A stretch of DNA of 64,000 nucleotides from Neoaquamicrobium sediminum. GTDB lineage: Bacteria > Pseudomonadota > Alphaproteobacteria > Rhizobiales > Rhizobiaceae. The stretch spans positions 2,170,001 through 2,234,000 of the forward strand of contig NZ_JABETK010000001.1 in assembly GCF_013240295.1 (NCBI RefSeq), read 5' to 3'. Each line of letters starts with the position of its first letter. The first letter of the stretch is position 1. A program made the position numbers and the translations under genes. The notes below the pieces were generated by a model. The model searched no databases. It worked only from the letters and a program-made list of their open reading frames with translations, and was not told the DNA's origin. This document shows positions 2,227-39,105 of this stretch, in pieces.

Positions 2227-3657
2227 ATGGCGCAGGGCCGCACCCGACTCGCCGCCTGGTCGGCGGATGACACGCTCCGCTTCTATGAACTGACGGAGAC
2301 AGGATTCTCCCAGGTCGGGGCGGTCGGCATGGCGCACGACGCAACGGCTGTCTCCGAGGGTCGTCCGCCGATCCTCGGTTTCATCAAAGACGGTCGGTTC
2401 CTCTCCGCACTGTGGCAGGTTGCCCCCACTTCGTCGGTGCGGCTCTCAGCCTTCAATATGGTTCCCGCCGAGGTCAGCAATTCCGCGTACTCGCTAAGCG
2501 GAATTTCGTTCCGAGTGGTGTCAGACTGGAATGAGCCATTCGGCTATCGGCCCTTGTTGCGTGGGGACAACACATCCGGCTACGGGTTCGCAATTGACGA
2601 CGCCGCCGCCGTTACGAATACCGGCACCGAGTCCGGTTTCTCTGTCGCAAGCCGCCGCTCGCTCGCGTTCTCCCCGGATGGGCAGTTGGCGGTTCTCGGT
2701 GCCGACAGCGGGCAGAGTTCAATCCACATCGTGGATAGCCCGACTATTGGGAACCCGGCTTTCGTCCCCCTTACGACTCTGTCGGAACATCTTGCGCCGG
2801 TTGATGCCGTCTATTGGTCGGACGATGGAAACTTCTTTTTCGCGGTCGACCGTAGCGCAGGTGGGAAGGTGACGGTGTTCCGTCGTGGCACCGCAAACGC
2901 CTTCGACGCGGTGTGGGAAATCAGTTCCGCTCACGGCGATCCACACGCTGTCGCCGTGTCGAGGGACCGCCGCCACGTCGCCGTGTCGTTCGTCGGTTCC
3001 GGGGTTTATACGACGGTGGTCTATCGTCGCCTCGCGAACGTCTTCCAGCCCATCCAGACTCTCGCTCAGCCTATGGGACGGCTGCTCGGCTTCTCGGGTG
3101 ACGGGGCATTGCTCATCGACGCAAATGCCAAGGTGGCCTATCGGAACGTCGAGGGCGTGTTCGAAGAACAAGTTGGCCTGTTTACCAACGTCGCGGGCAC
3201 CGTCATGGCGCAGGCCGTCAGTCCGCACATGGATCAGATCGTCTCGACATCCTCGTTCTACGATGGTGCTCTTGCGGCGTTGGTGACTGACACAGTTGAT
3301 CTTCAAGCCCTCAAGGTCGTCCTTCTGTCTGACGCCGCAGAGTTCGACCCCAACGCCAGCACTCTCGCTGAGGTCACGAACGGCGGCGCATACGAGGTTC
3401 ACGGCAATGGATGGACCGAAGGCGGTGAACCGCTGACCTCAGTCGCGAATAGCGAAGTCAACGGAAACTTAGTTGCGCTCGTCGCGGACGACATTAGCCG
3501 GATCATTTTCGGCGGCGGGATCGAGTTCCGCTACGCGGTGATTGTGGAAGGCTCGACGCCTCGCATCTTCACCGATTTCAGCCAGCCGGTCATCGTCGGA
3601 GCGGACAAGGAACTCGGGTTCGACTTCTCCAACGGTCTCGTCGTCTACAGTCTATAG
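2227..3657 (+). CDS. Second beta-propeller tail protein
   Basis: 476 residues, starting four bases after the preceding stop, so probably translationally coupled. It shows the same WD40-like blades as its neighbours (AFSPDGQLAVLGAD, VYWSDDGNFFFAVD, AVSRDRRHVAVSF, GFSGDGALLIDA). The last 130 residues no longer look like blades and may form an attachment domain. It probably belongs to the tail tip or side fibres. A 13-base regulatory-type site lies inside the gene at 3464. Sequence divergence from the other two propellers is large, so this is an old family expansion and not a recent duplication. Confidence 0.65.
   Translation: MAQGRTRLAAWSADDTLRFYELTETGFSQVGAVGMAHDATAVSEGRPPILGFIKDGRFLSALWQVAPTSSVRLSAFNMVPAEVSNSAYSLSGISFRVVSDWNEPFGYRPLLRGDNTSGYGFAIDDAAAVTNTGTESGFSVASRRSLAFSPDGQLAVLGADSGQSSIHIVDSPTIGNPAFVPLTTLSEHLAPVDAVYWSDDGNFFFAVDRSAGGKVTVFRRGTANAFDAVWEISSAHGDPHAVAVSRDRRHVAVSFVGSGVYTTVVYRRLANVFQPIQTLAQPMGRLLGFSGDGALLIDANAKVAYRNVEGVFEEQVGLFTNVAGTVMAQAVSPHMDQIVSTSSFYDGALAALVTDTVDLQALKVVLLSDAAEFDPNASTLAEVTNGGAYEVHGNGWTEGGEPLTSVANSEVNGNLVALVADDISRIIFGGGIEFRYAVIVEGSTPRIFTDFSQPVIVGADKELGFDFSNGLVVYSL
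3464..3476. promoter_or_regulatory. Dispersed 13-mer site (GAAACTTAGTTGC)
   Basis: An exact copy of the 13-mer also found at 25634, here within the coding sequence of a propeller gene. It has the AACTWAGTT core shared by at least nine sites in the phage region. A candidate repressor-binding site acting inside an operon. Confidence 0.5.
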
Positions 3658-3668
3658 GGGGCGCGGCA

Positions 3669-4735
3669 ATGCCGATCGAGATACGGAAGCAGGCGAACCC
3701 CGCAACGTTGCCTACCGCACAGGCTTACGTGGTCGCGGTCTCGCGCGACGGACAATATGTTGCAGTTGGGTTCGAGGCGGCACCCTACTTCCACTGCTAC
3801 CGGAAGGTCGACGGATCGTGGGTGAAACTCGCCAATCCTGCGATCCTCCCTCCGGGGGTGTGCAGGGGAATATCCTTCTCGCCCGATGGTTCGCTGCTGG
3901 CGGTGTCCCACTCCCCATCGCCTCGGGTGTCGATGTATATCCTGTCAGGAGATACGCTCACCAAGACGAACGACCTCTCCCCGCTCCCGCCGAGCAATTG
4001 TAGGGGGTCCGCATTCTCCCCTGACGGGGCCTATTTCGGCGTGGCGCACGTCAATCCGCCCCGCTTCTCAGTCTATGCGATTGACGGGACCACGTTCACC
4101 AAGATTGCGGACCCGGTCGAACTGCCTCCGAACCACGGAGAGTCTTTCGCATGGGGGAAGCAGGCGACATCGTAGCTGTCGGTTCGGCGAACCAGAGCGG
4201 ACAGGCGAACGGCTACGTCTACACGTTCGATCCGGTCTCCGACAGCCTAACCAAGATGGCCGACCTCGACACTCGCCTGTTTAGCTCGGGCTATGGGGCG
4301 GCTGTGCGTCCTGACAACGCGCACGTAGCCTTCTCCCATCCGGGAGTTCCCTACGTTTCCATCTATGACGTTACCAGCGGCTCGCCCACGAAGTTGGCTG
4401 ACCCCGCCGTCCTGCCGACAACGAACGCTCGCGGTTGCGCCTATGATCCGAGCGGGCGGTTCCTTGCGGTGGCCTACGGGGCTGCACCATACGTGATTGT
4501 CTATGAGTATGACGGCGCGAACTACGTGAAGGTTGACGACCCTGACATCCCTCCCACGGGAAGCGGGATGGGTGTTGCCTTCTCGGCGGACGGAACGATT
4601 ATGGCCGTCTCCCACAACACTGCGCCATACCTGTCGATCTATGAGGTAGGTGAGTCCATTAACGCCGAAGGTGCCCCCTATTCCCCGCATTCGTCGCGGC
4701 GGGCGAGGGGAGATTATCGAGCCTACGGAGTATGA
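3669..4735 (+). CDS. Third beta-propeller tail protein, single frameshift
   Basis: Two overlapping frames join into one propeller of about 355 residues. The first frame stops at 4175 and the second carries the homologous continuation from 4151. The break lies in a run of five G (4153-4157); a sixth G gives an unbroken blade (SFAWGEAGDIVAVG). Blades repeat at about 45 residues with the pattern P..LP....G..FSPDG..LAVSH..SP...IY. The break is most simply a sequencing error; a -1 ribosomal slip on GGG is possible but unsupported. The end overlaps the next gene's GTG start by 86 bases. Probably a tail fibre or receptor-binding component. Confidence 0.65.
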
Positions 4736-5645
4736 CATCGAAGGCGACTTGGCCTTCCCGAGATTCACGGTCTCAGGCGAACTTGCCGAGTTCGAGCTTG
4801 AGCCGATCTGGTCCCCTCCCGTCATCTTCGGTCCTGCGCCCATTCTGCTCAGCGGCCCCGACATCCCTGTGTCGATCAGCGACCCGCCACAGTTCGGATA
4901 TGCGGAAATCGCGCTCCCGACGTTTGGAGTAGCGGGAACCGCAGCATTCCCCATCCCGGTCGATGGTGAGGCGGTTTTCCCCGCATTCACCGCTGAAGGT
5001 ATTGCTGATCAGGAGCAACCCGAGCCCGTCGACGTTGAAGGCGCGTTCTCCTTCCCGAGTTTCAATGCGACCGGTGAGCTTAGCGCCCCCATCGGCGCGA
5101 TTTTCGAAGGGCAGTTCCCGAGCCTCGCGGCTGATGGCCTCGTTTTCGTCGACGTTTTGGTCGAGGCGGACGCGCTCTTCCCCGCCTTCTCCGTATCGGG
5201 CCAGTTCGACATTCCGATCACCGTGGAGGCTGACGCGCGGTTCCCGGCGTTTGCGCTGCAGGGCTTCGCCGCGCCCGACACCATGGCCGATGGCAACCCC
5301 ATCTTCCCACGCTTCGCCACGGCAGGTCTCATCGCCCCGGATACCGTGGTCGACAGCGGCTTCGTTTTCCCGCGCTTCACTGCCAGCGGTACGGCTCGCC
5401 GACCATTGGTCGTGGACGCGAATTTTGCCTTTCCGGGTTTCGGCGCTCAGGGAAGCGCCGCTGTTCAGTACCGGGCCAGCGGCGATCTGGCTTTCCCGCG
5501 ATTCCGCGTCAGCGGCTACGACGAGGGCGGCGGATCGAGCTACGCCGGGATCTCAGCCGCAAGCCTCGGCGGCGGGATCAGCGCCACATTCCTGCCGATT
5601 GCATCCGTGCGGATCGGCTTCGGCAACAACATAACCATAGGATGA
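4650..5645 (+). CDS. FPxFxxxG-repeat tail protein
   Basis: 331 residues from a GTG start that overlaps the end of the third propeller gene. After about 30 residues the protein consists of ten or eleven copies of a 24-28 residue unit with the signature FPxFxxxG (for example FPRFTVSG, FPAFTAEG, FPRFATAG, FPRFRVSG), each linked by an acidic or small-residue segment. It ends in a Gly/Ser-rich segment. The regular spacing suggests a beta-rich fibrous or solenoid protein, likely a structural part of the tail tip. I do not recognise a named family. Confidence 0.6.
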   Translation: MSPLTPKVPPIPRIRRGGRGEIIEPTEYDIEGDLAFPRFTVSGELAEFELEPIWSPPVIFGPAPILLSGPDIPVSISDPPQFGYAEIALPTFGVAGTAAFPIPVDGEAVFPAFTAEGIADQEQPEPVDVEGAFSFPSFNATGELSAPIGAIFEGQFPSLAADGLVFVDVLVEADALFPAFSVSGQFDIPITVEADARFPAFALQGFAAPDTMADGNPIFPRFATAGLIAPDTVVDSGFVFPRFTASGTARRPLVVDANFAFPGFGAQGSAAVQYRASGDLAFPRFRVSGYDEGGGSSYAGISAASLGGGISATFLPIASVRIGFGNNITIG

Positions 5646-5651
5646 AGCATC

Positions 5652-5918: not shown

Positions 5919-5920
5919 GT

Positions 5921-5962: not shown

Positions 5963-5981
5963 AAATCGAAGGAGCACTACC

Positions 5982-6185: not shown

Positions 6186-6209
6186 TCCCCTAGCGCCAGG
6201 AGAACGGCC

Positions 6210-8515: not shown

Positions 8516-8585
8516 TTCCTTACCCTCGGGCTTTCTGTTTCTCCGTTTCTCACCCGACGTTTCAGCCTGTAACATCTGCACAGGG

Positions 8586-8640: not shown

Positions 8641-8667
8641 TTTCAACCACGTGTTGAGAGGACTATT
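8641..8667 (+). promoter_or_regulatory. Operon-head motif, second tandem copy
   Basis: TTTCAAC, 13 bases (with GTTGAGAG), then GACTATT. The dyad TCAAC-CACGT-GTTGA is intact. Same orientation as the copy at 8586 and 55 bases away. Confidence 0.45.
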
Positions 8668-8781: not shown

Positions 8782-8794
8782 GTAACTAAGTTTC
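8782..8794. promoter_or_regulatory. Dispersed 13-mer site (GTAACTAAGTTTC)
   Basis: AACTAAGTT core in the intergenic space between the methylase stop and the hypothetical gene on the same strand. One of nine exact-core sites in the phage region. Confidence 0.45.
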
Positions 8795-8843: not shown

Positions 8844-10127
8844 CTAAATCAACTCTGATGAGTCTTGACTCGCGAAAGTTGAAATAATGGCGCGCAAATA
8901 TTCGTCCGCGATCGACGGATCGACCATGGGAAGTTTGAACCGCCGCCTGATGTCATCAGCGTGGTCGGGCTCGCGCTCTACAAGCAGCGCATTCATTCCC
9001 TCGGCGAGTGCTGCCGCACCTGTCGTCCCCGAGCCAGCAAATGCGTCGAGGACCGTGCCACCGGCAGGCGTGGTGAGCCTTACAAAATGTCGAAGGAGAC
9101 CGACAGGCTTTACCGTAGGGTGAGACGATCCGTCTCGGTCAGCCTTCTTTGCCTTGCCGTGGTAGGTGATCGCGTCGATGTCGGGCGGGAAGCAGTTGAA
9201 GAACCGAGCAGCCGATCCGGCGTCCGACCGCCTTGCCGAGGGCACTCGGCCCTTGAACTCGTTGTAGATGCCGTTGGTGACGCCCGAGGGCTCGTTGCCC
9301 TTCACGTCGCCTTTTTGCCCCTTGCTGGCGGGGAACAGCCCCACGACATCATCGCTACCGTCATGCAGGAGGTTCGCGGGCCAGCGTCCCTCGGGCTGAA
9401 CAAATTCGAGGCCCTGATCGCGGCGGAAGCTGTTGTTCTCGCCCCATTCGTCGTCCCGTGCCTGGCCGCTCTTGGCGTAGGCACCGCCGTTCAGATCGTC
9501 CTCAGTCGGCACAAGGCACTTCTTGATGTTAAGTGCGCCGACGCCGTGCGTCAGAACGTTGCGAAAGCCGGTCTTCGTGTCGAACGGCTTCTGGCCGATG
9601 TAGACAGGTTCAATCGCAGGCTTCGTGCTTTGGGTGCCGTAGTACCAGCCTTCCCATGCAATCAGTTCAGCCTCGGGGACCCCCGCCTTACGTGCGAGCC
9701 GCGTTACGCTATGGGCCTTCGGGAAACCCGAGCCGTACACCCATCCGGTGAACGGGTGCATGATGAAGCCTGCAAGCTCCATTGCTGCCGCTTGCCAATG
9801 GCCGGTGCGCGGCGACGAGAAGGCGAGGCAGTAACCGCCAGGGAGCAGCAGATCGTAGACCAGTGACCAGAACTCGGGGTCATGGGCGATCCGGTATCCG
9901 CTCTCGTCGGCGGCGTCCCACACACGGCCCATGAACCCCTTTGACTGGCGGGTGAAGCGCCCGTCTGATCCCGCCTTCGCCGGGGCCGATCCACGTTTGC
10001 CGAAGCGCTTTGCCACGCTCTCAAGGTAGTAGGGCGGGTCCATGAGGGCCGTGTGGACCTTTCGGCCCTGCGCGACCAGTCGGCGCAGCACTTCGTTGGC
10101 GTCACCCTGATAGAACTCAACCGTCAT
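8844..10127 (-). CDS. DNA methyltransferase (N6-adenine or N4-cytosine type, beta order)
   Basis: 427 residues. Catalytic motif IV DPPY lies near residue 32 and the SAM-binding motif FAGSGTTG near residue 380, preceded by HPTVKPVGLLRH. Motif IV before motif I with a central target-recognition region defines the beta class (PF01555). DPPY favours adenine N6 methylation. The target is unknown; the central region does not look like CcrM. No partner restriction enzyme is nearby, so it is probably an orphan enzyme that protects phage DNA or affects regulation. Its start overlaps the upstream small gene (ATGA). The protein ends in SSELI, similar to the tails of several other phage proteins. Confidence 0.85.
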   Translation of the reverse strand: MTVEFYQGDANEVLRRLVAQGRKVHTALMDPPYYLESVAKRFGKRGSAPAKAGSDGRFTRQSKGFMGRVWDAADESGYRIAHDPEFWSLVYDLLLPGGYCLAFSSPRTGHWQAAAMELAGFIMHPFTGWVYGSGFPKAHSVTRLARKAGVPEAELIAWEGWYYGTQSTKPAIEPVYIGQKPFDTKTGFRNVLTHGVGALNIKKCLVPTEDDLNGGAYAKSGQARDDEWGENNSFRRDQGLEFVQPEGRWPANLLHDGSDDVVGLFPASKGQKGDVKGNEPSGVTNGIYNEFKGRVPSARRSDAGSAARFFNCFPPDIDAITYHGKAKKADRDGSSHPTVKPVGLLRHFVRLTTPAGGTVLDAFAGSGTTGAAALAEGMNALLVEREPDHADDIRRRFKLPMVDPSIADEYLRAIISTFASQDSSELI

Positions 10128-11169: not shown

Positions 11170-11182
11170 GAAACTTAGTTTG
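11170..11182. promoter_or_regulatory. Dispersed 13-mer site overlapping a stop codon
   Basis: GAAACTTAGTTTG on the + strand. Read on the - strand it contains the TAA stop of the next gene upstream (AAC TAA) and lies about 37 bases before the gapR start. Position at a gene junction fits a transcription-blocking site. Confidence 0.5.
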
Positions 11183-12229: not shown

Positions 12230-13111
12230 TTACACGAGGTCGTCAGACGGTCGTGCCTTGCTTTGGTCGAGGAATTTGAGTTCGCTCAGGCCGGTGATTT
12301 CGAAGATGGCGGCGATGTCGGCTGGGCCGAAGTGGACAACCACGTTGTCGCCGTCCTGATGCGCCCACACCCGTTCGAAGATTTCGGCGACAGCCTGCTT
12401 CACTGACTTCGCCGGGGCCTTCGGCTGCTTCTTCTCAGCGGCCTTTCGGACGTGCTTGGCAGTCGCGCGATCCTTGCCCGACTTCTTCGCCTCCTTCACG
12501 GCCTCCTTGAGTTCCTTGGCCGCAGCCTTGGCCTCGCCCTTGTGCTTGTTGAGCGTGGTGATCGCGAGCGTCGACGAAACCTCGCCCGAGCGAACCAGAT
12601 CGGTCAGCGTCTTCGGGGCCGCGACCAAGGCGATGAGGTTCGAGACGTGGACGCGGCTGATGCCCGCCTTCTTGGCGATGTTGGATTCCGTCCAGCCCAG
12701 GTCCGTGAGGCGCTTGAACACCTGCCCCTGCTCGATCGGCGTCAGCGGCTTGCCCGAATTTCGAACGATCATCGAGAACGTGCGCTCGGCCTCGTCGGCG
12801 TTGCGGTTCTCCGTCACGACAGGCACGAGCATTTCGCGGTCAGCGCCGAGGGTGTCGATGGCGTACATCGCGGCGGCGCGGCGACGGTGTCCGTCCGAGA
12901 CGAACGCCTTACCGTCTTCCCAATAGGCAGTGAGGGACTGTTTGACGCCGATTTCGGCGATGGACTGCGCCAGCGCGAGGTCTTCGATGTCCTCGGGGTT
13001 GAAGTCGTTCTCGCGGGCGTTCCAGCCCTCTTTCGTATGCAGATCGAAGGGGCTCAAGCGGTACTGATCCGACCGCCCCTTCGCCAGTTCCTTAATGCCG
13101 GTTGCCATCAT
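12230..13111 (-). CDS. ParB-like DNA-binding protein
   Basis: 293 residues. An N-terminal ParB/Srx-fold domain carries the VSDGHRRRAA box (residues 71-80), equivalent to the GERR/CTP-binding motif. A helix-turn-helix follows at about 140-165 (TESNIAKKAGISRVHVSNLI). The rest is Lys/Ala-rich. No parA is next to it, so it may regulate transcription or replication and need not partition DNA. The ribosome site AGGAG lies six bases before the first ATG. The operon-head motif at 13151-13178 is immediately upstream. The C terminus RPSDDLV matches the shared phage tail motif. Confidence 0.75.
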   Translation of the reverse strand: MMATGIKELAKGRSDQYRLSPFDLHTKEGWNARENDFNPEDIEDLALAQSIAEIGVKQSLTAYWEDGKAFVSDGHRRRAAAMYAIDTLGADREMLVPVVTENRNADEAERTFSMIVRNSGKPLTPIEQGQVFKRLTDLGWTESNIAKKAGISRVHVSNLIALVAAPKTLTDLVRSGEVSSTLAITTLNKHKGEAKAAAKELKEAVKEAKKSGKDRATAKHVRKAAEKKQPKAPAKSVKQAVAEIFERVWAHQDGDNVVVHFGPADIAAIFEITGLSELKFLDQSKARPSDDLV

Positions 13112-13150: not shown

Positions 13151-13178
13151 TATGGTCGTGTCAACAGTGGGTTGAAAC
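13151..13178 (-). promoter_or_regulatory. Operon-head motif upstream of the ParB-like gene
   Basis: On the - strand: TTTCAAC, 13 bases with GTTGACAC, then GACCATA. The dyad TCAAC-CCACT-GTTGA is perfect. The 20-base core is the same as the one at 32043 in front of a + strand operon. Confidence 0.6.
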
Positions 13179-13186
13179 TAAGTTGA
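13174..13186. promoter_or_regulatory. Dispersed 13-mer site fused to the operon-head motif
   Basis: GAAACTAAGTTGA overlaps the edge of the dyad. On the - strand the TAG stop of the gene ending at 13178 falls inside it (ACT TAG). Confidence 0.5.
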
Positions 13187-14792: not shown

Positions 14793-15661
14793 GGCGCTGA
14801 CCTCCCGCCGCCAAAGACGTAGTCACGCCAGGCGATCCAGCACCACTTGCCGTCACGGTTCTTGAGGAAGCCCCACGGGCGACCGCCCTTGCCCCGCCAA
14901 ACCAGCGTGACGATAGCGCCGGGACCGTATGCGGCCCTGACCCCGTTCTTCTCGCACGGCTCGCCGCCGACGTATCGCCCGAGGACGCGATGCGTGTGCT
15001 CGGCGGGACGGAAGGTCCAGCGCCACGCACGAACGATCTGACGGCGCACTTCATAGCGCTCTTCGGTGTGGCCGAAATCAAAGGTTTCGTTGAGCGCGTC
15101 GACCGGCACCACATGATCGCTCACGCGAACGTTCCGGCGCTCCGTGACTTCCTCGACATATGGTGTCAGCGGGAACGTCCAGAAGTCCCAAGGATGGTCG
15201 TGCGGATCAGCGTCAAGGTCGCCCCGGTGGAAGATGTGGAGACGCAGCCGCCCGATCCACATGCGCGTCATGTAGGGCGAGCCGTCGTCACCGTGGATCG
15301 TGTGCCGTCCGAGGAAGCTTTCGCCCTTCTCCCTCTTCGCGCTGCGCCTGCTATCCCAATCCTCGGGTGGGCCAGGTGGCAAGTCTTCCAGGCTTTTGCC
15401 TTCTCGCATGAACTCGCGGATGTCCTCGGACAGCCATCCGCGCTTCAAAAGCTCGTCGACGAGAACCTTTTCCTTCCAGCAGACGCAGTCGTCAGGGTGG
15501 CGCGGACATCGTTCCTCGGGGTCGTCCTGACCCTCGCAAGTCAATGGGACGTGGACGGCGCTGCAAACCATGCAGACGTAGGAATCGATCCGCATGGTTT
15601 GGTGCCTGTAGTGCGGGAGCCAGTCGTGGTCCCGACCGAGTTCGGCGCAGTCGCGGGTCAT
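14783..15661 (-). CDS. Cupin-like phage protein with N-terminal Cys cluster
   Basis: 292 residues. Residues about 25-65 carry CMVCSA and CPRHPDDCVC, a possible zinc site. Residues about 130-270 contain HIFHRGD, DPHDHPWDFWTFPL and PAEHTHRV followed by WTL/TLVW-type strands, the His pattern of a cupin-like barrel seen in phage proteins with LHDHPW motifs. Such proteins are of unknown activity, possibly metal-dependent. ATGA overlap with the upstream gene. Confidence 0.55.
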   Translation of the reverse strand: MTRDCAELGRDHDWLPHYRHQTMRIDSYVCMVCSAVHVPLTCEGQDDPEERCPRHPDDCVCWKEKVLVDELLKRGWLSEDIREFMREGKSLEDLPPGPPEDWDSRRSAKREKGESFLGRHTIHGDDGSPYMTRMWIGRLRLHIFHRGDLDADPHDHPWDFWTFPLTPYVEEVTERRNVRVSDHVVPVDALNETFDFGHTEERYEVRRQIVRAWRWTFRPAEHTHRVLGRYVGGEPCEKNGVRAAYGPGAIVTLVWRGKGGRPWGFLKNRDGKWCWIAWRDYVFGGGRSAPCE

Positions 15662-15831
15662 TGTTCCTCACTCGCGCTGAGTAGGTCGAGAATTTCCGTC
15701 CGCATCAGCGACATGCGCGCGGCCAGTTCGAGCGGTGGCACCCGCTCGTCGCGGAAGTGGTTCGCCATGGTCTCGAAGCGCTGCGCGATCTTCTCGCGGA
15801 CGTTTCGGACGGGTTCTGCTTGCTGTGTCAT
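15658..15831 (-). CDS. Small helical phage protein
   Basis: 57 residues read directly from the sequence: starts MTQQAEPVRNVREK and ends LLSASEEQ. Amphipathic helices, no Cys. ATGA overlaps at both ends make it part of a coupled gene train. Confidence 0.5.
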   Translation of the reverse strand: MTQQAEPVRNVREKIAQRFETMANHFRDERVPPLELAARMSLMRTEILDLLSASEEQ

Positions 15832-16549: not shown

Positions 16550-16562
16550 GCAACTCAGTTTC
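16550..16562. promoter_or_regulatory. Degenerate 13-mer site (GCAACTCAGTTTC)
   Basis: One mismatch in the AACTWAGTT core. It lies between the operon-head motif and the first start codon of the operon. Confidence 0.35.
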
Positions 16563-16586: not shown

Positions 16587-16614
16587 CTTGGTAATGTCAA
16601 CAGCAGGTTGAAAC
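16587..16614 (-). promoter_or_regulatory. Operon-head motif
   Basis: On the - strand TTTCAAC, 13 bases with GTTGACAT, then TACCAAG; dyad TCAAC-CTGCT-GTTGA is perfect. It precedes the operon 16539 to 13178. Confidence 0.6.
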
Positions 16615-20910: not shown

Positions 20911-20938
20911 ATTGGTCATGTCAACCGCTTGTTGAAAC
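20911..20938 (-). promoter_or_regulatory. Operon-head motif
   Basis: On the - strand TTTCAAC, 13 bases with GTTGACAT, then GACCAAT; dyad TCAAC-AAGCG-GTTGA perfect. It precedes the 15-gene operon 20870 to 16618. Confidence 0.6.
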
Positions 20939-21096: not shown

Positions 21097-21109
21097 TAAA
21101 CTTAGTTGC
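21097..21109. promoter_or_regulatory. Dispersed 13-mer site (TAAACTTAGTTGC)
   Basis: One base different from the copies at 3464 and 25634. It lies 17 bases beyond the stop of the gene at 21126, at the junction of two transcription units. Confidence 0.5.
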
Positions 21110-25633: not shown

Positions 25634-25646
25634 GAAACTTAGTTGC
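25634..25646. promoter_or_regulatory. Dispersed 13-mer site (GAAACTTAGTTGC)
   Basis: Exact match to the site at 3464. It lies between the ribosome site of the DUF3560 gene and the stop of the gene upstream. Confidence 0.5.
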
Positions 25647-26294: not shown

Positions 26295-26635
26295 CCGTCC
26301 GACTCCCAGGAAAAGCGAAACCACGCATAGACGGACTCGCCATCGTTCGCGCCGTCGCTCTTGTCGGGTCGACCTTTGAAGGCCGCGCGCTTGTCAACAT
26401 CGCTAAAGCAATATTCAACGGCGCGGCGGACGGCTTGCGCGGTCACGCATTCGGGAAGCTTGTCGCCATAGGCGCGGACCTCATCAAGCACGGCGCGGAA
26501 AACGTCGCCATTGCGTGACGTGTGGTCGACGGGAACGCCGCAAAGCCATTCAGAGTCCCCGTTGCAATGGTCCGCCACATAGTCGGGCAAGCACGTGTCG
26601 ACGTGGCGAACACTCAGGCGAAACTTACTTTCCAT
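26291..26635 (-). CDS. Hypothetical phage protein
   Basis: 114 residues. Acidic with VRHVDTCLPDYVADHCNGD and a helix AVLDEVRAYGDKLPECV. A degenerate 13-mer (GAAACTTACTTTC, 26620-26632) overlaps its first codons. The start lies inside the end of the upstream gene. Confidence 0.45.
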   Translation of the reverse strand: MESKFRLSVRHVDTCLPDYVADHCNGDSEWLCGVPVDHTSRNGDVFRAVLDEVRAYGDKLPECVTAQAVRRAVEYCFSDVDKRAAFKGRPDKSDGANDGESVYAWFRFSWESDG

Positions 26636-27304
26636 CGGACGACTCCACGTTCAAGCGTTCGCAAAGCGCGTCGATTGCGTCCGCGTCCAGTGAGACCACG
26701 GAGTCGCCATTCGTCGCTATCTCGTGAATTGCGTTCGAACGGTTCCCAGGGTCGCCCATGCCGGACTCCTGATAGAACCTGAGCGCGGCAAGCACGGTCG
26801 CTAGTTCCTGAGCGTCCAGCGGCGCGCGCTTCACCATGTCCGCAAGCTTTGCCATGCGCTGCAATTCAACGCGCGCAATCCGCTTTCCCTCTTCCGTGCC
26901 GTTCTCAATCGCAAGCAAGAGCAACGGCAACGTGCCTTCCCAGGAAAGGGATATGGCAAGCGTTCCCGCCTGGACGGCTCCGGCTCTTCCGTGGTCGACG
27001 GGGACTCTTTGGTGCTGGCGTTGATTGCCTCTTGAACGTAGTTCGTGAACCAATCGGCAGACTCGCGCGCCTCAACTCTTGCGCGCTTCCCCATGTGCGA
27101 CACGTTCTCTTGATCCGTGAAGGCATTCCAGCGGAGAATAACGACGGTCGCGCCTTCACAGACTAGCGACACTTGCGGGCGAAACGTCGCGCCGTGGTCA
27201 TCCGTATAAATGCCCGACTCGGCATAGATCAAACGATCATGCTGGCGTGACACGTCGACCGCGTAAGCCGTCATATCGGCGAGATTGGCAAACCTCTTGA
27301 ACAT
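26625..27304 (-). CDS. Hypothetical phage protein, single frameshift
   Basis: Start MFKRFANLADMTAYAVDVSR after a GGGAG site. The first frame runs to about 26950-26990; the continuation GTLPLLLLAIENGTEEGKRI ... LCERLNVESSDGK is one frame off and one missing base (GGG read as GG) would join them. Restored length about 226 residues. Contains an SLVCEGATVVILRWNAF strand segment and a helical C-terminal half. Function unknown. Confidence 0.45.
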
Positions 27305-27799: not shown

Positions 27800-27827
27800 A
27801 CGGGACATATCAACAAACAGTTGAAAC
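27800..27827 (-). promoter_or_regulatory. Operon-head motif with plausible promoter
   Basis: On the - strand TTTCAAC, 13 bases with GTTGATAT, then GTCCCGT; dyad TCAAC-TGTTT-GTTGA perfect. TTGATA is followed after 17 bases by CATATA, a good -35/-10 pair. Drives the operon 27780 to 22221. Confidence 0.6.
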
Positions 27828-31708: not shown

Positions 31709-31984
31709 TCAGTCTTCCAGAACGAAGGCGAGCAAAGCATCCATCGTAAGGGTGGAACCGGGCAGGCCCATCAGGGGCTTGACCTTCTTGGGCGGGACCG
31801 ACTGACGGTCGAACCAACGGTAAATCGCCTTGTCGCTGATCCCGAGGTCGTCCCCGAGCTTGCGGCAGTCGAGAACGCCTTCGTTCGTCTGGCTGCGGTG
31901 CGCGGGGAGCCCGTCATGCAGAACCTTGTAGAGTGGTGTGGATCGGCTCGTCTCGCCGCCGACGAGATCGCTGTTGTCGCCCAT
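31709..31984 (-). CDS. Small helix-turn-helix protein
   Basis: 91 residues. CRKLGDDLGISDKAIYRWFD (residues 40-59) is a helix-turn-helix with a Trp-Phe in the recognition helix, as in YdaS/Cro-like proteins. Placed divergently from the operon at 32134, so it could act as the Cro-type antagonist of the repressor at 39232. A GAGGG site precedes the start. Confidence 0.6.
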   Translation of the reverse strand: MGDNSDLVGGETSRSTPLYKVLHDGLPAHRSQTNEGVLDCRKLGDDLGISDKAIYRWFDRQSVPPKKVKPLMGLPGSTLTMDALLAFVLED

Positions 31985-32042: not shown

Positions 32043-32070
32043 GTTTCAACCCACTGTTGACACTGCCAAG
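32043..32070 (+). promoter_or_regulatory. Operon-head motif upstream of the replication operon
   Basis: TTTCAAC, 13 bases with GTTGACAC, then TGCCAAG; dyad TCAAC-CCACT-GTTGA perfect. The core is identical to the site at 13159-13178. Confidence 0.6.
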
Positions 32071-32761: not shown

Positions 32762-33016
32762 ATGGGTACGAAGATTGAACTTGGCCTGACCTACAAGGAC
32801 TCGATCACCGGGTTCGAGGGCGTGGCTACCGGCCACTGCGAATACATCAGCGGGTGCAATCAGACGCTCTTGGTGCCGAAGGTCGACGAGAAGGGCGCAC
32901 ATCGCGACAGCTATTGGTTCGACGATCAGCGGATGGTGCTCATTCCCGACGCCACGAAGATCGTCCTCGACAATGGTGCAACCCCCGGCTCGGACAAGCC
33001 TGCTCCGATCCGCTGA
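32762..33016 (+). CDS. Small conserved phage protein
   Basis: 84 residues. The pattern LTYKDSITGFEGVATGHCEY, then SGCNQTLLVP and YWFDDQRM, is seen in many siphophage genomes next to replication genes; function unknown. It has an AAGGAG site and is followed after two bases by the DUF2800 gene. Confidence 0.65.
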   Translation: MGTKIELGLTYKDSITGFEGVATGHCEYISGCNQTLLVPKVDEKGAHRDSYWFDDQRMVLIPDATKIVLDNGATPGSDKPAPIR

Positions 33017-33018
33017 CC

Positions 33019-34193
33019 ATGGCCCCTACGTCCCACGCTCGTCTTTCTCCATCCTCGGCGAGCCGGTGGCTGCGATGCCCCGGCTCGGTGAATTTCCTTG
33101 CGGATGTAGAAGACGAGGGTGGGATACCGGCTGCTGAGGGAACCATCCTTCACAGCTTTTGCGAAGACTGCCTGCGCGATGACCGCGAGGCCCACGAGTT
33201 CGTCGGCGAGGTACGTGAGCACGACGGCTACAAGCTCGAACTCACCGAGGAACTGGCCGATCTGATCCAAGACGGCCTCGACGAAATCGACACCATTCCC
33301 GGCAAGCTCTACATCGAACGGCGGGTCGACCTCGGGCGCTGGATGCCCGGTCAGTTTGGCACCCTCGACGTAGGGATCATCGGTCGACGGATCATCCACA
33401 TTTGGGACTGGAAGTGGGGATACCTGCCGGTCAGCCCCGTGTGGAACGAGCAAGAAATGCTCTACGGCCTGGGCTTTTGGGACAAGATCGCCCGCCATAT
33501 CACCGACGCCACCGACTTCCGGCTCCACATCTTCCAGCCCCGTGCGCCAGGCGGCGGGGGTCGTGGGACGTGACACTCGACCAACTTCTTGAGTTTGGTC
33601 GCGAGGCGAAGAAGAAGGCCCGCGCAACCTATGACGAAGACGCACCGCGCATCCCCGGCCCGAAACAGTGCATCTACTGCGACGGCGCGAAGTCGCTCAC
33701 CTGCCCCGAATACAACGAATACCACCTGAAGCTCATCGTTGACGAGTTCGACGAAATGGACGAGCGGATCGAGCTTGGCGTTGGCCCCCGACTCCCCTCG
33801 TCGAACCAGATGACCCCCGAGCGGCGCAGCTTCATCCTTGAGAACTGGCCCTCCCTCGTGAAGTGGCACGAACGTCTTCACGCGGACGCCCTCGACGACG
33901 CGATGAAGGGTCTGCCGGTGCCGGGGCTCAAGGCGGTGATGGGACGCAACCCGCCGCGCAAATGGAAAGACGCCGAGGCCGTGCAACCGGCATTGGTGCG
34001 CGCCCTCGACGACGACGCCTATACCAAGAAGCTCGTGTCACCGACGCAAGCAGAAGCCCTCCTGCCGCCGAAGCTCTACTCGAAGCTGGCGAATGAGCAC
34101 CTTGCGAAGCAGGAGCCCAAGCCCACGCTCGTTTCCGAGCACGACAACCGGGAGCCGGTCGCCACCATCATCGACCTGTTTGACGACGACTAA
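33019..34193 (+). CDS. DUF2800 Cas4-like nuclease, single frameshift
   Basis: Restored length about 391 residues, typical of DUF2800 (PF10926). The N-terminal frame has LSPSSASRWLRCPGSVNFL, AAEGTILH, GQFGTLDVGII and IWDWKWG (the PD-(D/E)XK motif). The continuation holds PGPKQCIYC...C, the Cys cluster. The break is in a run of five G (33556-33560); a sixth joins LHIFQPRAPGGGG to SWDVTLDQLLEFG. Proteins of this family resemble Cas4/RecB-type exonucleases and always sit beside DUF2815 and a DNA polymerase. Likely role: recombination or end processing in phage replication. Confidence 0.8.
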
Positions 34194-34220
34194 GTGTCAA
34201 CCAAAAGTTGACATTAACAA
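34194..34220 (+). promoter_or_regulatory. Operator-like perfect dyad before the DUF2815 gene
   Basis: TGTCAAC-CAAAA-GTTGACA (34195-34213) is a perfect 7-5-7 inverted repeat, starting two bases after the DUF2800 stop. It fits the operon-head family (N13 then TAACAAT). It may divide the replication operon into two regulated parts. Confidence 0.6.
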
Positions 34221-34243
34221 TGATGCCGTGAAAGGAGATTCCA

Positions 34244-35280
34244 ATGGCTGATAACGAACGTGATCCCCGAAGGGTCCAACTCAAGGATGTCCGTATCGGC
34301 CATCCGCAACTCTTCAACGCCCGAGGGTTCGGCAAGAGCAACAGCGGTGAGAAGGCATACAGCGCGCAGTTCTACATCGACCTGTCCACCAAGCAGGGTA
34401 AGGCGCAGGAAGACGCCATTCTGGACGCCGAAGAGGCCGCAATGGAGCGGGAGTTCGGTGAGGACCGGAAGAAGTGGCGAAGATCAAGAAGGACAACAAG
34501 CCATATTTCTACGGCGACGATGTCGACGAGGACGAGCGCAAGCCCGAGTGGGAAGGAATGCTCGTCGTGAAGTCGCGGAACAAGAAGCGGCCCCGCGTCC
34601 TCGACCGTGACAAGACCGACCTCGACGAGGCGGACGGCCTGCCCTACGGCGGCTGCTACGTCGACGCTATCGTGCAACTGTGGGGCCAGACCTACGAGGG
34701 CATCCCCCGACTGAACAACGCCCTCGAAGCTGTTCGCTTCCGTCGCGACGGTGAGGCGTTCGGCGCTGCCCCGGTCGACCCTGACGAGTTCGACGACCTG
34801 GATGACGAGGATGATGATCGCGGTTCCCGTCGCCGTGGCCGCGACCGTGATGACGAGGATGACGACCGAGGCTCGCGCCGCCGTGGCCGTGACCGCGACG
34901 ATGAGGACGATGATCGCGGATCGCGCCGCTCCCGCAGCCGCGACGATGACGACGATGACCGTGGCTCGCGTCGGGGCAGGGGTCGGGACCGGGACGACGA
35001 GGATGATGATCGCGGCTCCCGGCGCTCCCGAGACCGCGATGACGATGATCGTGGATCTCGCCGTTCGCGCGATCGCGATGATGAGGACCGGGATGATGAT
35101 CGCGGTTCCCGTCGTGGCCGAGACCGGGATGACGATGACGGGGACCGCCGCTCGCGCCGTAGCCGCGACAGCGAGGATGACGACGTGGACCGTCCGAGCC
35201 GGAACAGCCGAGCCCGCGACCGCGACGACAGGGACGATGACCGCCGTTCCCGCCGTCGACGCGACCACGACGACATCTGA
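34244..35280 (+). CDS. DUF2815 ssDNA-binding-type protein with long R/S/D repeat tail, single frameshift
   Basis: Restored length 345 residues. Residues 1-180 match DUF2815 (PF10991): VQLKDVRIGHPQLFNARGFG, GEKAYSAQFYID, PEWEGMLVV, LPYGGCYVDAIVQLW and GIPRLNNALEAVRFRRDGE. One missing G near 34476 (TGGCG for TGGGCG) breaks the frame. Residues about 183-345 are a low-complexity tail of some ten units such as DDDRGSRRRGRDRDDE, seven with DRGSRR, ending RRDHDDI. DUF2815 proteins act as phage ssDNA-binding proteins. The tail is far longer than normal and should be disordered; it may bind nucleic acid, recruit partners or drive condensation. Confidence 0.8.
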
Positions 35281-35288
35281 GCCAAGGG

Positions 35289-35310
35289 AGGGCCGGGGAA
35301 ACCCGGCCCT
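35289..35310 (+). promoter_or_regulatory. Perfect hairpin before the polymerase start
   Basis: AGGGCCGGG pairs with CCCGGCCCT around a GAAA loop, nine bases before the polymerase ATG and nine after the DUF2815 stop. No T-run, so not a normal terminator. It could be a translational control site, for example for autoregulation by polymerase or ssDNA-binding protein. Confidence 0.45.
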
Positions 35311-35318
35311 CACCACCT

Positions 35319-37241
35319 ATGCGCCGCACCCTCGTATTCGACATAGAAGTCTACAGGAATTTTTTTTCCTCATCGTGTTCATGGATGTGAACACGGGGAA
35401 GTTCTTCTCGTGGGAAATGGCCGAGGGTGAAAAACTCGAAATCGCCAGCCTCAAGCGGTTCGTTCGCAAACATCTGATCATCGGTTTCAACAGCCGGAAT
35501 TACGACCTCCCGGTCCTCTTCGCCGCCCTGGCGGGCTTCTCGACGAGCAAGATCAAGGACGTCTCGGACGACATCATTCAGGGCAACATGAAGCCGTGGG
35601 ACATCGAGCGGGAGTACCGCTTCTCGATCCCGCGCGATCTGGACCACATCGACCTCTACGAGCTTCCCAAGGGGCAACTCAGCCTCAAGCTCTATAACGG
35701 CAGGCTCCACGGCAAGCGGATGCAGGACTTGCCGATTGAACCTGACGCGATCCTCACGCCTCGTCAGATGGACGACATCTACGACTACTGCTGCAACGAC
35801 CTGTCGGCGACCAAGCTTCTCTACACGACGCTGCTCCCGCAGATCGAGCTTCGTAAGAAGATGAGCAAGGAATACGGCATCGACCTCCGCTCGAAGTCGG
35901 ATGCTCAGGTGGCCGAGGCGGTCATCAAGTCGGAAGTCGCCGACATTCTCGGGCGCGACGTAAAGCGACCGGAAATCACCCCGGCACCGCCTATCCGTAC
36001 AACATCCCTGATTTCATCCAGTTCAAGGACAAGGGCCTGAACGACATCCTCGACACGATTGAGGAAACTAAGTTTCGCATCGGCAACAACGGCGCGATGA
36101 TCCTGCCGAAGGCTCTGTCTGAGGCCAAAATCAAGATCGGTCGCGGCGTCTATCGCCTCGGGATCGGCGGGCTGCATAGCTCCGAGAAGTCCACATGCCA
36201 CGTTGCCGGGGATGATTATATCCTCGTCGACCGCGACGTGGCGTCCTACTACCCCGCCATCATCATCAACCAGAACCTTCACCCCAAGCAGATGGGGTTC
36301 GCCTTCCAGAAGGTCTACCGGAGCATCGTCGCGCGCCGCCTCAATGCGAAGAAGGACGCGAAGCTCGCCAAGGAGGAAATTAAGCAGCTTAAGGAAGCCC
36401 TCAAGGGCTCCAATAGCAATGGCGGGCCGTCGCTCATGGAAGAGCGCCTGGCCGAACTCTTGGCAGTCGCCGACGAGGCTACGGTCAGCGCGGACTCCCT
36501 CAAGATCACCATCAACGGATCGTTCGGCAAATTCGGCAGCAAGTGGTCAGCGCTCTATGCGCCGCAACTGCTGATCCAGACGACTATCACCGGACAGCTT
36601 TCGCTCCTGATGCTGATCCATCGCCTTGAGCGCGCGGGGATCGAGGTTGTCAGCGCCAATACGGACGGCATCGTGATCAAGTGCCATCGGGACGATGTAG
36701 AACTGATGGAGCGGATCATCCGCAAATGGGAGGCGGATACCCGCTTTGAAACGGAGGCGACCGAATACGCCGCGCTCTATTCGCGCGATGTGAACAACTA
36801 CATCGCCGTCAAGCCCGATGGATCAGCGAAACGGAAGGGCGTCTACGGCACCACCACCCTCGATAAGAACCCGCAGAACGAAATCTGCGCGGACGCGGTG
36901 GTCGCATTCCTGACCAAGAAAACACCCCTTCACAAGACCATTCGCGACTGTCGGGACATCACCAAGTTCGTGACTGTGAGGACCGTTCAGGGGGAGCGAT
37001 TAAGGGCCGTGCGTACCTCGGCAAGGCGATCCGCTGGTACTACTCGAACGAAGCCGAGGGGATCATCACCTATCGTAAACCCACGGCCAAGGGGACGCTC
37101 AAAAAGGTCCCCCGCACCGAGGGCGCTCGCCCGCTTATGGGGCTTCCCGACGAGTTTCCCGATGACATCGACTATCAATGGTATGTCCGCGAGGCGCGCT
37201 CGATCCTCGAAGACATCGGCTATCAGAAGGCACTCTTCTGA
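35319..37241 (+). CDS. Family B DNA polymerase with 3'-5' exonuclease, three frameshifts
   Basis: Restored length about 641 residues. Exonuclease motifs: LVFDIEVYRNF, IIGFNSRNYDLPVL and IYDYCCNDLSATKLL. Polymerase motif A: DRDVASYYPAIIINQNLHP; motif B: KITINGSFGKFG; motif C: SANTDGIVIK. Breaks: T8 run at 35360-35367 (nine T expected), GG at 35983 (GGG expected), and five G at 36990-36994 (six expected); each is one missing base. No stop codons occur other than those the shifts create, which argues against decay. This is the replicative polymerase of the phage. A perfect 13-mer site lies in the gene at 36064. TGATG overlap with the VRR-NUC gene. Confidence 0.85.
36064..36076. promoter_or_regulatory. 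Dispersed 13-mer site, perfect palindrome
   Basis: GAAACTAAGTTTC, symmetrical about the central A/T, inside the polymerase coding sequence (codons E-T-K-F-R). Identical to the site at 39093. Confidence 0.55.
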
Positions 37242-37531
37242 TGCTCGAATCCTACATCGAGCGGAAGGTCTGTGAATACGCGAAGAAGCTAGGATGGCTC
37301 GTCCGCAAACTGCAATGGGTGGGCCGTCATGGCGCGCCCGACCGGCTTTTCATCCGCGCTGGCCGTGTCGTCTTTATTGAGTTCAAGGCACCTGGCAAGA
37401 AGCCGACCGAGCATCAGCGTCTAGAGCTTGAACGCCTTCGTGAGCAGGGCATGGAAGCCTACGTCGTGGACGACATCGACGAGGGCAAGTTTATCCTGTC
37501 GAGCGGGCGGAACCACGAGGCGCTGATATGA
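37241..37531 (+). CDS. VRR-NUC nuclease
   Basis: 96 residues. ESYIERKVCEYAKKLGW, GRHGAPDRLFI and VVFIEFKAPGKKPTEHQ are the VRR-NUC (PF08774) motifs: D of APD and ExK of EFK are the metal ligands. Stand-alone VRR-NUC proteins resolve branched or flap DNA, including Holliday junctions. Coupled to polymerase (TGATG) and helicase (ATGA), as in many siphophage replication modules. Confidence 0.9.
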   Translation: MLESYIERKVCEYAKKLGWLVRKLQWVGRHGAPDRLFIRAGRVVFIEFKAPGKKPTEHQRLELERLREQGMEAYVVDDIDEGKFILSSGRNHEALI

Positions 37532-39100
37532 GCGCCGTTCTCGACCTCTACGGGATCGGCCACAACGGCGGACCCTCGATCGACGATGACGTGCTGCCGC
37601 CAGCCAAGCGCAAGCGGTCTGATCTGAGGCGCTACCAGCGCATCTTCGTCAACAAGATCAAGCGGCTCCCCTACCTGATCTTGGCGCTCCCGATGGGGTC
37701 GGGAAAGTCCGCTACGACGCTGACCGCGATGCTTGATCTTCTCGACGATCGAGAGGTCAAGCGGGTGCTCATCGTTGCGCCCCTGCTTGTGGCCTCGGCG
37801 ACGTGGCCCGATGAGATCGAAGAATGGGAGCACACCCGGCTTCTCGACTGGACTCTCATCCGCGCCGAGGACGATGACGACGACATCTCTGATGCCAGGC
37901 ACCGGGCCTACCGCACCGCTCGCGATCTGATCGGCCTCGATCCGAAGGAGTCGCAGCGCTTCGCCGGTCGCCGCGCCACCGTCGCGAAGGAGTGGAAGCG
38001 GGTCCGCCTGGCCAGGACCGACAGTGAAGTTCACATCATCAACCGCGAGGCACTTCCTTGGCTGTGGGACTTCTTCGGAAAGGGCAAGCGGTGGCCCTAT
38101 GACATGATCGTCGTCGATGAGGCGTCGATGTTCAAGAACGGTAAGATGCGGACGCCGAAGAAGCAGCTTACCCGCTTCGGTGTCATGGCGAAGGCTCGCA
38201 AATACGCCGACCGCGTCGTGCTGCTCACCGGCACCCCCGCGCCGAAGGGTCTGCAAAATCTGTGGGGCCTTGCGTACATCGCCGACCTCGGGGACCGGCT
38301 CGGCTCCAAGAAGAAGAACTTTGAGGACCGCTGGTTCAACAAGGACTTCATGGGCTGGAACCTTGAGCCAAAGCCGAAGGCCAAGGCGCAAATCATGGAT
38401 CGCCTCGGCGACATCATGTTCAGCCTGGCCGAAGAAGACTGCGTCGATCTTCCGCCGATGAACCCGGTCGAAGTGAAAGTTAGTTTACGCCCACGAGTCC
38501 TTGCCGAATATCGGCGGTTCGAGGAAACGCTGTATTCCGAAACCTATGACATCGAGGCCGTCAACAAGGGGGTCCTTCACGGGAAGCTGCTGCAATTTGC
38601 TAACGGCAGCATGTATAATGAGGACGGCAAGGACGTATGGATTCACGACGAGAAGCTTGAGGCACTTGAGCAGATCGTCGAGGATTCTGAATGGCGCGCC
38701 GGTCCTTGTCGGATACACGTTTCAATTCGACATGGCACGAATCCTTCGCCGCTTCCCGAAAGCGGTCATCTTCGGTCGTGGCGACGTTCGGAAAACAAAG
38801 GCGTCATGGAATCGTGGGGAAATCGACCTCATGTTGGCGCACCCGGCGTCGATAGGCCACGGACAGAATATTCAAGACGGCGGAAACATAAGCGTTTGGT
38901 ATGGGCTGACGCCCGACCTCGAACTCTATCAACAGTTCAATAAGAGGCTTCATCGGTCTGGTCAGAAGCTCACCGTTTGGAACCACCATATCATCGCCCG
39001 TGGAACCTATGATGAGAAGCTACTTCCGTTGCTGAGCAGCCGGGATGCCGACCAAAGCGAAATCCTTGAGTCAGTCCGCGTCCACCTGCAACGAAACTAA
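37528..39100 (+). CDS. SNF2-type helicase, single frameshift
   Basis: Restored length about 523 residues. Walker A: ALPMGSGKSATTL near residue 55; Walker B: IVVDEASMF; motif III: LLTGTPAPKGLQNLW; C-terminal lobe: GHGQNIQDGGNISVWYGL and FNKRLHRSGQ. The frame shifts near 38685-38692, here by one extra base (or two missing), between KLEALEQIVEDSE and VLVGYTFQFDMARIL. Phage SNF2-like helicases of this kind lie beside VRR-NUC and DUF2815 genes. The last codons AAC TAA fall within the 13-mer at 39093. Confidence 0.85.
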
Positions 39101-39105
39101 GTTTC
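39093..39105. promoter_or_regulatory. Dispersed 13-mer site, perfect palindrome at a stop codon
   Basis: GAAACTAAGTTTC containing the TAA stop of the helicase gene. Identical to the site at 36064. Confidence 0.55.

What the first reader, a model, noticed from the sequence alone, without database searches (positions are those of the whole stretch)
3464..39105. Dispersed 13-mer sites (core AACTWAGTT) across the phage, in genes and on stop codons
By eye I find the nine-base core AACTWAGTT at 3464, 8782, 11170, 13174, 21097, 25634, 27829, 36064 and 39093, with degenerate copies at 16550, 26620 and 27560 and none seen after 40 kb. About 0.5 copies would be expected in 64 kb of random balanced sequence. 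GAAACTTAGTTGC is exact at 3464 and 25634; the palindrome GAAACTAAGTTTC is exact at 36064 and 39093. Two sites lie inside coding sequence. In at least three cases (11170, 13174, 39093) the stop codon TAA/TAG of a gene is part of the site. Spread over operon interiors and ends, this is how the stoperators of mycobacteriophage L5 are arranged, where the repressor blocks elongation across the prophage. I know of no such system in rhizobial phages.
Basis: partly seen in the sequence, partly recalled or inferred. Interest (0 to 1): 0.82.

Follow-up and report, generated by a model that had tools for sequence, protein, structure and literature searches.

The report
Dispersed phage sites for a ParB-like protein
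A bacterial prophage carries a short DNA palindrome a dozen times along its own 67 kb and nowhere else in its host's assembled genome; related phages carry counterpart palindromes mainly when they also carry a gene for a ParB-like protein, so these sites are likely where that protein loads onto phage DNA, rather than roadblocks for the phage repressor.

Summary
The motif is real. AACTWAGTT occurs 9 times in the window (shuffles 0.04) and 12 times in the 6.14-Mb genome, all inside one 66.8-kb prophage.

The stoperator reading is not the best one. The sites are palindromic. The HTH repressor (39232-39924) has a better candidate operator, TCAAC-N5-GTTGA: 8 copies here, 6 over TTGACA, and 9 in AchV4, which lacks the first motif.

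The first motif follows an orphan ParB/KorB-like gene (12230-13111, minus). It is the only gene here with relatives in both AH2 and BcepNazgul and in none of four phages without such arrays. Two further phages found to have the gene were predicted to carry counterparts: Nazgul does (GAAGTNACTTC 18 times, expected 0.1), SS2019XI does not. No repressor match exists in Nazgul. In terminase-related records over 40 kb, 5 of 6 with the gene and 0 of 20 without have at least four counterpart sites. Against it: most of 49 other viral loci with ParB-like genes show no such array.

Likely mechanism: a ParB-family protein loads at dispersed sites, as KorB or Noc do. Binding is untested. The closest precedent is the unexplained repeat array of Corndog phages.

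The parts
3464..3476 (.). A site GAAACTTAGTTGC, inside a 476-aa virion protein gene
8782..8794 (.). A site between convergent genes, about 50 bp past the methyltransferase stop
11170..11182 (.). A site on the stop codon of a weakly supported minus-strand ORF
13174..13186 (.). A site upstream of the ParB-like gene; core abuts repressor-type operator B
16550..16562 (.). A site with C at the centre (AACTCAGTT), about 10 bp before a minus-strand ORF start
21097..21109 (.). A site
25634..25646 (.). A site just upstream of the 445-aa ORF start (25620, minus)
26620..26632 (.). degenerate A site GAAACTTACTTTC, 17.4 bits
27829..27841 (.). A site, 4 bp from operator B at 27810-27824
36064..36076 (.). 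A site GAAACTAAGTTTC inside the DNA polymerase frame
38475..38487 (.). degenerate A site GAAAGTTAGTTTA, 16.1 bits
39093..39105 (.). A site GAAACTAAGTTTC; its TAA ends the helicase-like ORF
12230..13111 (-). orphan ParB/KorB-like gene (293 aa), proposed binder of the A sites
   Evidence: Pfam HTH_ParB 39.4 bits (cut-off 22.6), KorB 19.4 (cut-off 22.3); PHROG 1033; AlphaFold pLDDT 90; best PDB fold KorB 8qa9; co-occurrence
39232..39924 (+). HTH_3 repressor, last gene before attR
8643..8657 (.). operator B TCAAC-N5-GTTGA (no TTGACA)
13161..13175 (.). operator B over a minus-strand TTGACA, upstream of the ParB-like gene
16597..16611 (.). operator B over a minus-strand TTGACA
20921..20935 (.). operator B over a minus-strand TTGACA
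27810..27824 (.). operator B (no TTGACA)
32046..32060 (.). operator B over a plus-strand TTGACA
34197..34211 (.). operator B with TTGACA on both strands
39192..39206 (.). operator B over a plus-strand TTGACA, just upstream of the repressor gene
39991..40013 (.). attR: 23-bp direct repeat of the 3' end of tRNA-Leu(caa) at C1:2143222-2143244

Best explanation
The dispersed 13-bp palindromes (GAAACTWAGTTTC and variants) are likely the DNA loading sites of the prophage's own orphan ParB/KorB-like protein (window 12230-13111), which is predicted to sit on or slide from them along the phage genome, rather than stoperators of the phage repressor. Shown: the exact motif is confined to the prophage in this genome; among terminase-related phages, those with the ParB-like gene mostly carry a counterpart odd-centre palindrome array (half-site AACT or AAGT), and those without it do not; the predicted fold is that of ParB/KorB with an HTH. 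Inferred: that the protein binds the sites; that half-site changes track changes in its HTH; that, like KorB, ParB and Noc, it closes a nucleotide-dependent clamp and spreads, so that about 18 sites would load it over the whole phage genome. Least certain is the consequence: I favour phage-wide control or organisation of DNA during lytic growth (KorB-like silencing or Noc/ParB-like packing), because an array persists in a phage with no detected repressor, sites lie inside genes, and no ParA-type gene was found in the prophage.
For: All 12 exact sites in 6.14 Mb lie in the prophage. A matrix trained on 13 prophage sites finds those plus 5 more at 12 bits or above, and 0 in 37 kb of host flank. 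Of prophage ORFs of 45 aa or more, the ParB-like gene alone has matches (E<=1e-3) in both AH2 and BcepNazgul and in none of AchV4, KPN133, RHph_X2_30, RcCWillis; it also matches in the array-bearing partial contigs G479, G482, G078, G086, G103. AH2: 4 AACTWAGTT and 1 AACTCAGTT (corrected E 5e-3). Two phages then newly found to have the gene were expected to carry an array: Nazgul has GAAGT-N-ACTTC x18, expected 0.096, corrected E 7e-31; SS2019XI has none. Whole-record AAGTNACTT (reversed control): G479 8(0), G482 14(2), G078 13(1), Nazgul 18(0), G103 5(0). Records over 40 kb: 5 of 6 with the gene and 0 of 20 without have at least 4 sites, Fisher p 9e-5; without a threshold, Mann-Whitney p 0.001. 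The closest terminase relative found, G476 (76%), lacks gene and array but has the repressor; G479 (73%) has all three. Three of five AH2 sites map within 32-111 bp of Nazgul sites. Sites flank Nazgul's parB (15168, 16480; gene 15308-16474), and one precedes it here (13174). Fold: KorB, ParB, Noc. No PF13614 match in the prophage.
Against: No binding was measured; the link is co-occurrence. One of the two predictions failed: SS2019XI has a divergent ParB-like gene (29% over 95 aa) and no array. Of 49 viral loci fetched by the ParB-like protein, 9 reach per-gap E<0.05 for an odd-centre (N1) word, three of them marginal (two CTCG words, one at 0.045); gaps 3 and 5 do so in 16 and 14 loci, so N1 is not special in that set. 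Relatives close in sequence (48-59%) show no A-type word; nine of them counted whole have 0 AACTWAGTT and 0-3 AAGTNACTT. Having the gene is thus not enough. Eta, Mica, MD8 and FoX1 (31-33% ParB) show no A-type array (MD8 has a GC-rich N1 word at E 0.025). No prophage site maps within 500 bp of an AH2 or Nazgul site. AH2 has no site near its parB. The threshold of 4 and the 111-bp radius were set after seeing the data, and AH2 is exactly at 4. AAGTNACTT was chosen after G479, G482, G078 and G103 hits. Fifteen of the 20 negative records are contigs that may be incomplete; 15 of 40 records (14 contigs under 40 kb, one bacterial genome) were left out, among them array fragments L111 and L182 with no ParB found. 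Phages without the gene have other N1 words: RHph_X2_30 CTCG x18, RcCWillis GTCAAC x4, KPN133 GATG x9. The CTP motif is only partly canonical.
Confidence: 0.7

Rival explanations
1. Stoperators: the 39232 HTH repressor binds the 13-mers and blocks elongation across the prophage.
For: Sites are confined to the prophage and spread over operon interiors and ends; sites at 13174 and 27829 lie beside operator B; in cluster A phages site sequence also differs between related phages (PMC6550527 passages). AH2, G479 and G482, which have arrays, also have the repressor.
Against: Palindromic, not asymmetric. The repressor family has another repeated operator, though AH2, RcCWillis and SS2019XI have it only in looser or changed form (0, 0 and 1 exact). 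AchV4, KPN133, RHph_X2_30 and G476 have the repressor without the array. Nazgul has 18 sites and no repressor match.
Confidence: 0.11
2. A different phage DNA-binding protein (the Cro-like 31709-31984 ORF or a small accessory protein) binds the palindromes, and the ParB-like gene is only a fellow traveller.
For: AH2 and Nazgul share a gene annotated Cro in AH2. Many small genes have no family assignment. SS2019XI breaks the ParB link.
Against: The prophage's 91-aa ORF matches KPN133, AchV4 and RcCWillis (no array), not AH2, Nazgul or the part of G479 held. The ParB-like gene is the only prophage ORF with the required distribution among the fully read phages.
Confidence: 0.11
3. The sites serve classical partition (parS with ParA) of a plasmid-like state of the phage.
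For: ParB-family fold.
Against: No PF13614 match in the prophage (other ParA models not searched). The phage is integrated at tRNA-Leu. BcepNazgul's annotated products in 1-50,000 name no ParA, integrase or repressor, though many are hypothetical.
Confidence: 0.04
4. The palindromes are not regulator sites but elements for DNA modification, replication, recombination or packaging.
For: A DNA methyltransferase gene lies at 8844-10127. Sites lie inside genes.
Against: From general knowledge, methyltransferase sites are not expected to be enriched, and arrays of 5-18 sites are too many for origins or cos. The co-occurrence with the ParB-like gene would be unexplained.
Confidence: 0.04

Closest known systems
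17-bp dispersed palindromes of cluster O (Corndog) mycobacteriophages (PMC4351075; sections 8 and 13 read, passages elsewhere)
   Same: Array of 34 palindromes (TGTTCGGNNNCCGAACA) between and within genes, mostly not at predicted promoters, absent from M. smegmatis and M. tuberculosis; phages encode a ParB-like domain protein (gp90) and no ParAB system; function unknown.
   Different: Different site sequence and length; the ParB-like protein of the relative NiebruSaylor (502 aa) matches ours only over 130 columns of the N domain and HTH (28%) and has no Pfam HTH_ParB match; the authors do not assign a binder.
KorB and its O_B operators (plasmid RK2)
   Same: ParB-family repressor; best fold match to our model (8qa9, 8qa8); acts locally and at a distance by a CTP sliding clamp from O_B sites (PMC11790492, 12 of 20 passages).
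   Different: KorB domain model below Pfam cut-off here; no KorA partner sought; phage, not plasmid; O_B number and sequence are recalled, from no call.
Noc and its NBS sites
   Same: ParB paralogue with many sites dispersed over a replicon (recalled); among the top folds (7nfu).
   Different: Acts on cell division through a membrane helix (recalled); not examined here.
Cluster A (L5) stoperators
   Same: Phage-wide sites mostly not at promoters; site sequence differs between related phages (PMC6550527 passages).
   Different: Asymmetric, aligned with transcription, bound by the immunity repressor.
ParB-CTPase fold proteins of phages and prophages (PMC12704722, 12 of 23 passages)
   Same: Survey places ParB-fold proteins widely in phages and prophages.
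   Different: The word 'dispersed' does not occur, and the passages seen report no cognate site arrays.

Membership tests
L5-type stoperator | asymmetric site in one orientation relative to transcription | tested here: not met
   near-perfect palindromes
L5-type stoperator | bound by the immunity repressor | not testable with these tools
   indirect evidence against: separate operator B; array in Nazgul without a repressor match
L5-type stoperator | many sites outside promoters, across operons | tested here: met
ParB family | ParB N-domain and HTH fold | tested here: met
   HTH_ParB over cut-off; fold matches to KorB, ParB, Noc, Spo0J
ParB family | CTP binding and clamp closure | not testable with these tools
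   GHRR and Asn/Glu positions kept, the Gln-Arg of ENxQR changed (motif recalled)
KorB/O_B system | global repressor with multiple dispersed palindromic operators | tested here: inconclusive
   array and ParB-like gene co-occur; repression not tested
KorB/O_B system | KorA clamp-locking partner | not tested
   no search made
parABS partition | ParA ATPase beside ParB | tested here: not met
   no PF13614 match in the prophage; 16 matches elsewhere in the genome
Corndog-type repeat array | dispersed palindromes in and between genes of a phage with a ParB-like gene and no ParA | tested here: met
   for Corndog from PMC4351075 and NiebruSaylor annotation
Corndog-type repeat array | sequence TGTTCGGNNNCCGAACA | tested here: not met

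The most novel reading that the evidence does not exclude
Several unrelated phage lineages (Casjensviridae here, Corndog-type mycobacteriophages, perhaps the Agrobacterium phages Milano and 7-7-1) share a phage-wide ParB coat: an orphan ParB-family clamp loaded at 5-35 palindromes scattered through the genome, genes included, that controls or organises phage DNA during infection, with site and protein specificity diverging together between phages.
Probability: 0.38. Interest if true: 0.9.

Novelty: new variant of a known kind. Interest (0 to 1): 0.73.

Why it matters
Arrays of short palindromes scattered through phage genomes, such as Corndog's 34 copies, had no assigned binding protein in the paper that describes them. 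This case ties such an array to one gene within one phage family, gave a prediction that came out strikingly in one of two phages, and separates the array from the repressor's likely operators. It makes the question directly testable with one purified protein and one palindrome. If right, ParB-family clamps would be phage-wide regulators or organisers with fast-evolving specificity, outside plasmid and chromosome partition.

Tried and rejected
Repressor stoperators: set aside once operator B appeared and Nazgul showed an array with no repressor match. Conservation through the 445-aa protein (L005-L023): its neighbours align to the prophage mostly around that gene only, so it looks mobile and was no test. 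ParB as binder was first dropped when its 50-59% relatives showed no AACTWAGTT, and taken up again when variant half-sites appeared in terminase relatives. The idea that A half-sites abut operator B: AGTT beside B occurs in 4 of 8 copies and may belong to B. Milano's TACAAA-N3-TTTGTA was first taken for a ParB site; in 7-7-1 two related sites fall in annotated promoters (27265-27291, 30173-30199), so it looks like a promoter operator. Regular spacing of sites: not supported. Codon statistics (p 0.0006-0.04 per site in the prophage) are conditional on having chosen the sites and only show that the motif is not forced by protein sequence. Rfam and tRNA scans of the window: nothing. Same-family host genomes: 1 of 388 has the ParB-like gene at E<=1e-30, its own. 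The 68% repressor / 73% ParB relative on a 69,413-bp contig (P0002, P0054) could not be fetched: viral-contig scans found neither. Papers: searches (20 of 135 listed; 10 of 30; 12 of 45) listed no title or abstract start that ties a ParB-like protein to dispersed sites in phages; PMC2248197 passages hold no ParB.

Full report
Observation. AACTWAGTT occurs nine times in the window at the stated positions, against 0.04 expected from dinucleotide shuffles. In the whole 6,135,496-base assembly it occurs 12 times, and all 12 lie between C1:2143414 and C1:2209103. A 23-bp direct repeat of the 3' end of tRNA-Leu(caa) bounds this region (C1:2143222-2143244 and window 39991-40013), so the motif belongs to one integrated prophage of 66.8 kb that starts 26.8 kb left of the window. 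Three sites lie left of the window (-26586, -24618, -1242 in window numbering). A palindromic weight matrix trained on the 13 AACTNAGTT sites of the prophage recovers those 13 plus five degenerate ones (-21650, -14093, -7844, 26622, 38477) at 12 bits or more, and none in 37 kb of host flank. The 27560 copy was not recovered.

The phage. Terminase, portal, capsid and tail genes match Casjensviridae such as Achromobacter phage AchV4 in order, with the repressor as last gene before attR. Several core genes are split by apparent frameshifts relative to AchV4 (portal, major tail, tape measure, exonuclease, polymerase, helicase, integrase); assembly error and decay were not told apart. The site at 36064 is inside the polymerase frame, and sites at -24618, -1242 and 3466 are also inside genes, in two different frames.

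Two motifs, not one. A de novo palindrome scan finds a second array, TCAAC-N5-GTTGA (motif B), 8 exact copies here and 9 in AchV4 (expected 0.06 and 0.04). Six of the eight overlap a TTGACA box, on either strand. Of six other named phages with a repressor homologue, three have B (AchV4 9, KPN133 6, RHph_X2_30 11) and three have it only in looser or changed form (AH2 0, RcCWillis 0 but TCAC-N7-GTGA 15, SS2019XI 1 but CAAC-N5-GTTG 12); Nazgul, with no repressor match, has 1. The repressor's HTH region is strongly conserved between this phage and AchV4. So the repressor most likely binds B. AchV4, KPN133 and RHph_X2_30 lack the array of motif A.

Who binds motif A? Burkholderia phage AH2 has 4 AACTWAGTT and 1 AACTCAGTT. 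Scans showed odd-centre palindromes with changed half-sites in terminase relatives L106 (AAAGT-N-ACTTT), L110 (AAGT-N-ACTT) and L182 (GAAAC-N-GTTTC), the same half-site in L111 (AACT-N-AGTT), and others in ParB-fetched loci L074, L084 and L101. A profile of the ParB-like protein 12230-13111 matched 6 of 40 terminase- or repressor-related records: G479 (L106), G482 (L110, partial match), AH2, BcepNazgul, SS2019XI, and somewhere in the Stutzerimonas genome of L034. I then expected arrays in Nazgul and SS2019XI. Nazgul has GAAGT-N-ACTTC 18 times; SS2019XI has none. Whole-record counts of AAGTNACTT are 8, 14, 18, 13 and 5 in G479, G482, Nazgul, G078 and G103, and 0-2 in the 20 ParB-negative records over 40 kb. 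Of those over 40 kb, 5 of 6 with the gene and 0 of 20 without have at least four sites (threshold set afterwards). In an all-ORF comparison the ParB-like gene is the only prophage ORF with matches in both AH2 and Nazgul and in none of four array-free phages. Three of five AH2 sites map within 32-111 bp of Nazgul sites (binomial p 0.003 with the radius taken from the data), but no prophage site maps within 500 bp of a site in either.

Limits of the link. SS2019XI is an exception. Of 49 viral loci with ParB-like relatives, 9 show an N1 word at per-gap E<0.05, three of them marginal, and gaps 3 and 5 do so in more loci; the relatives close in sequence show none of A type. Milano and 7-7-1 (about 51% identity) have 6 and 5 AAGTNACTT (0.6 expected in Milano), which is only suggestive. 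G078, G103 and G086 were found through ParB, so their arrays support but do not test the link independently.

The protein. It carries Pfam HTH_ParB (over cut-off) and a sub-threshold KorB match. Its profile finds Spo0J, ParB, KorB and Noc in the PDB. The AlphaFold model (pLDDT 90) matches KorB from the KorB-KorA-DNA complex best (8qa9). No PF13614 match lies in the prophage.

Mechanism. Most likely the ParB-like protein loads at these palindromes and, by analogy with KorB, ParB and Noc, may close as a clamp and spread. Binding, clamp action and effect are all untested. Sites inside genes, 11 of 18 wholly within the annotated genes examined in Nazgul (genes up to 50,885), and an array in a phage with no repressor match argue for a role in the lytic cycle rather than in repression of the prophage.

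Known systems. The closest precedent is the unexplained array of 34 palindromes in Corndog-type mycobacteriophages, which also encode a ParB-like protein without ParAB (PMC4351075, sections 8 and 13). The ParB-like protein of a Corndogvirus aligns with ours over 130 columns at 28%. L5 stoperators differ in being asymmetric, oriented and repressor-bound. No listing in my searches tied a ParB-like protein to such arrays in phages.

Noticed in passing
prophage core genes, e.g. window 32854-39100 and left of the window: Integrase, portal, major tail, tape measure, exonuclease, polymerase and helicase genes are each split by apparent frameshifts relative to AchV4; assembly error or decay not resolved.
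   Followed up: partly
window 8643, 13161, 16597, 20921, 27810, 32046, 34197, 39192: Second dispersed palindrome TCAAC-N5-GTTGA, 6 of 8 over TTGACA; changed forms TCACC-N5-GGTGA (L179, L157) and TCAC-N7-GTGA (RcCWillis, L122, L145) suggest changed repressor specificity.
   Followed up: partly
window 1794-5645: Three ORFs resemble ORFs of the Agrobacterium phage Milano annotated as virion-associated (53%, 30%, 21%), suggesting a swapped virion cassette.
   Followed up: no
window 24283-25620: 445-aa protein of unknown function, 97% identical to one in a viral contig (L005) that otherwise aligns little; looks like a recently moved accessory gene.
   Followed up: no
L038/L039 (Milano) and L040/L041 (7-7-1): TACAAA-N3-TTTGTA repeated 7 and 5 times; in 7-7-1 related sites fall in annotated promoters: an operator-like element of unknown binder.
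   Followed up: partly
L091:6721-7771: TAGCG-N3-CGCTA four times, about 2-3 kb from a ParB-like gene, resembling the KorB operator as recalled.
   Followed up: no
BcepNazgul (L199-L201) 21740, 43850, 48762: Three of the 11 wholly in-gene sites start exactly 40 bp from the gene start.
   Followed up: no
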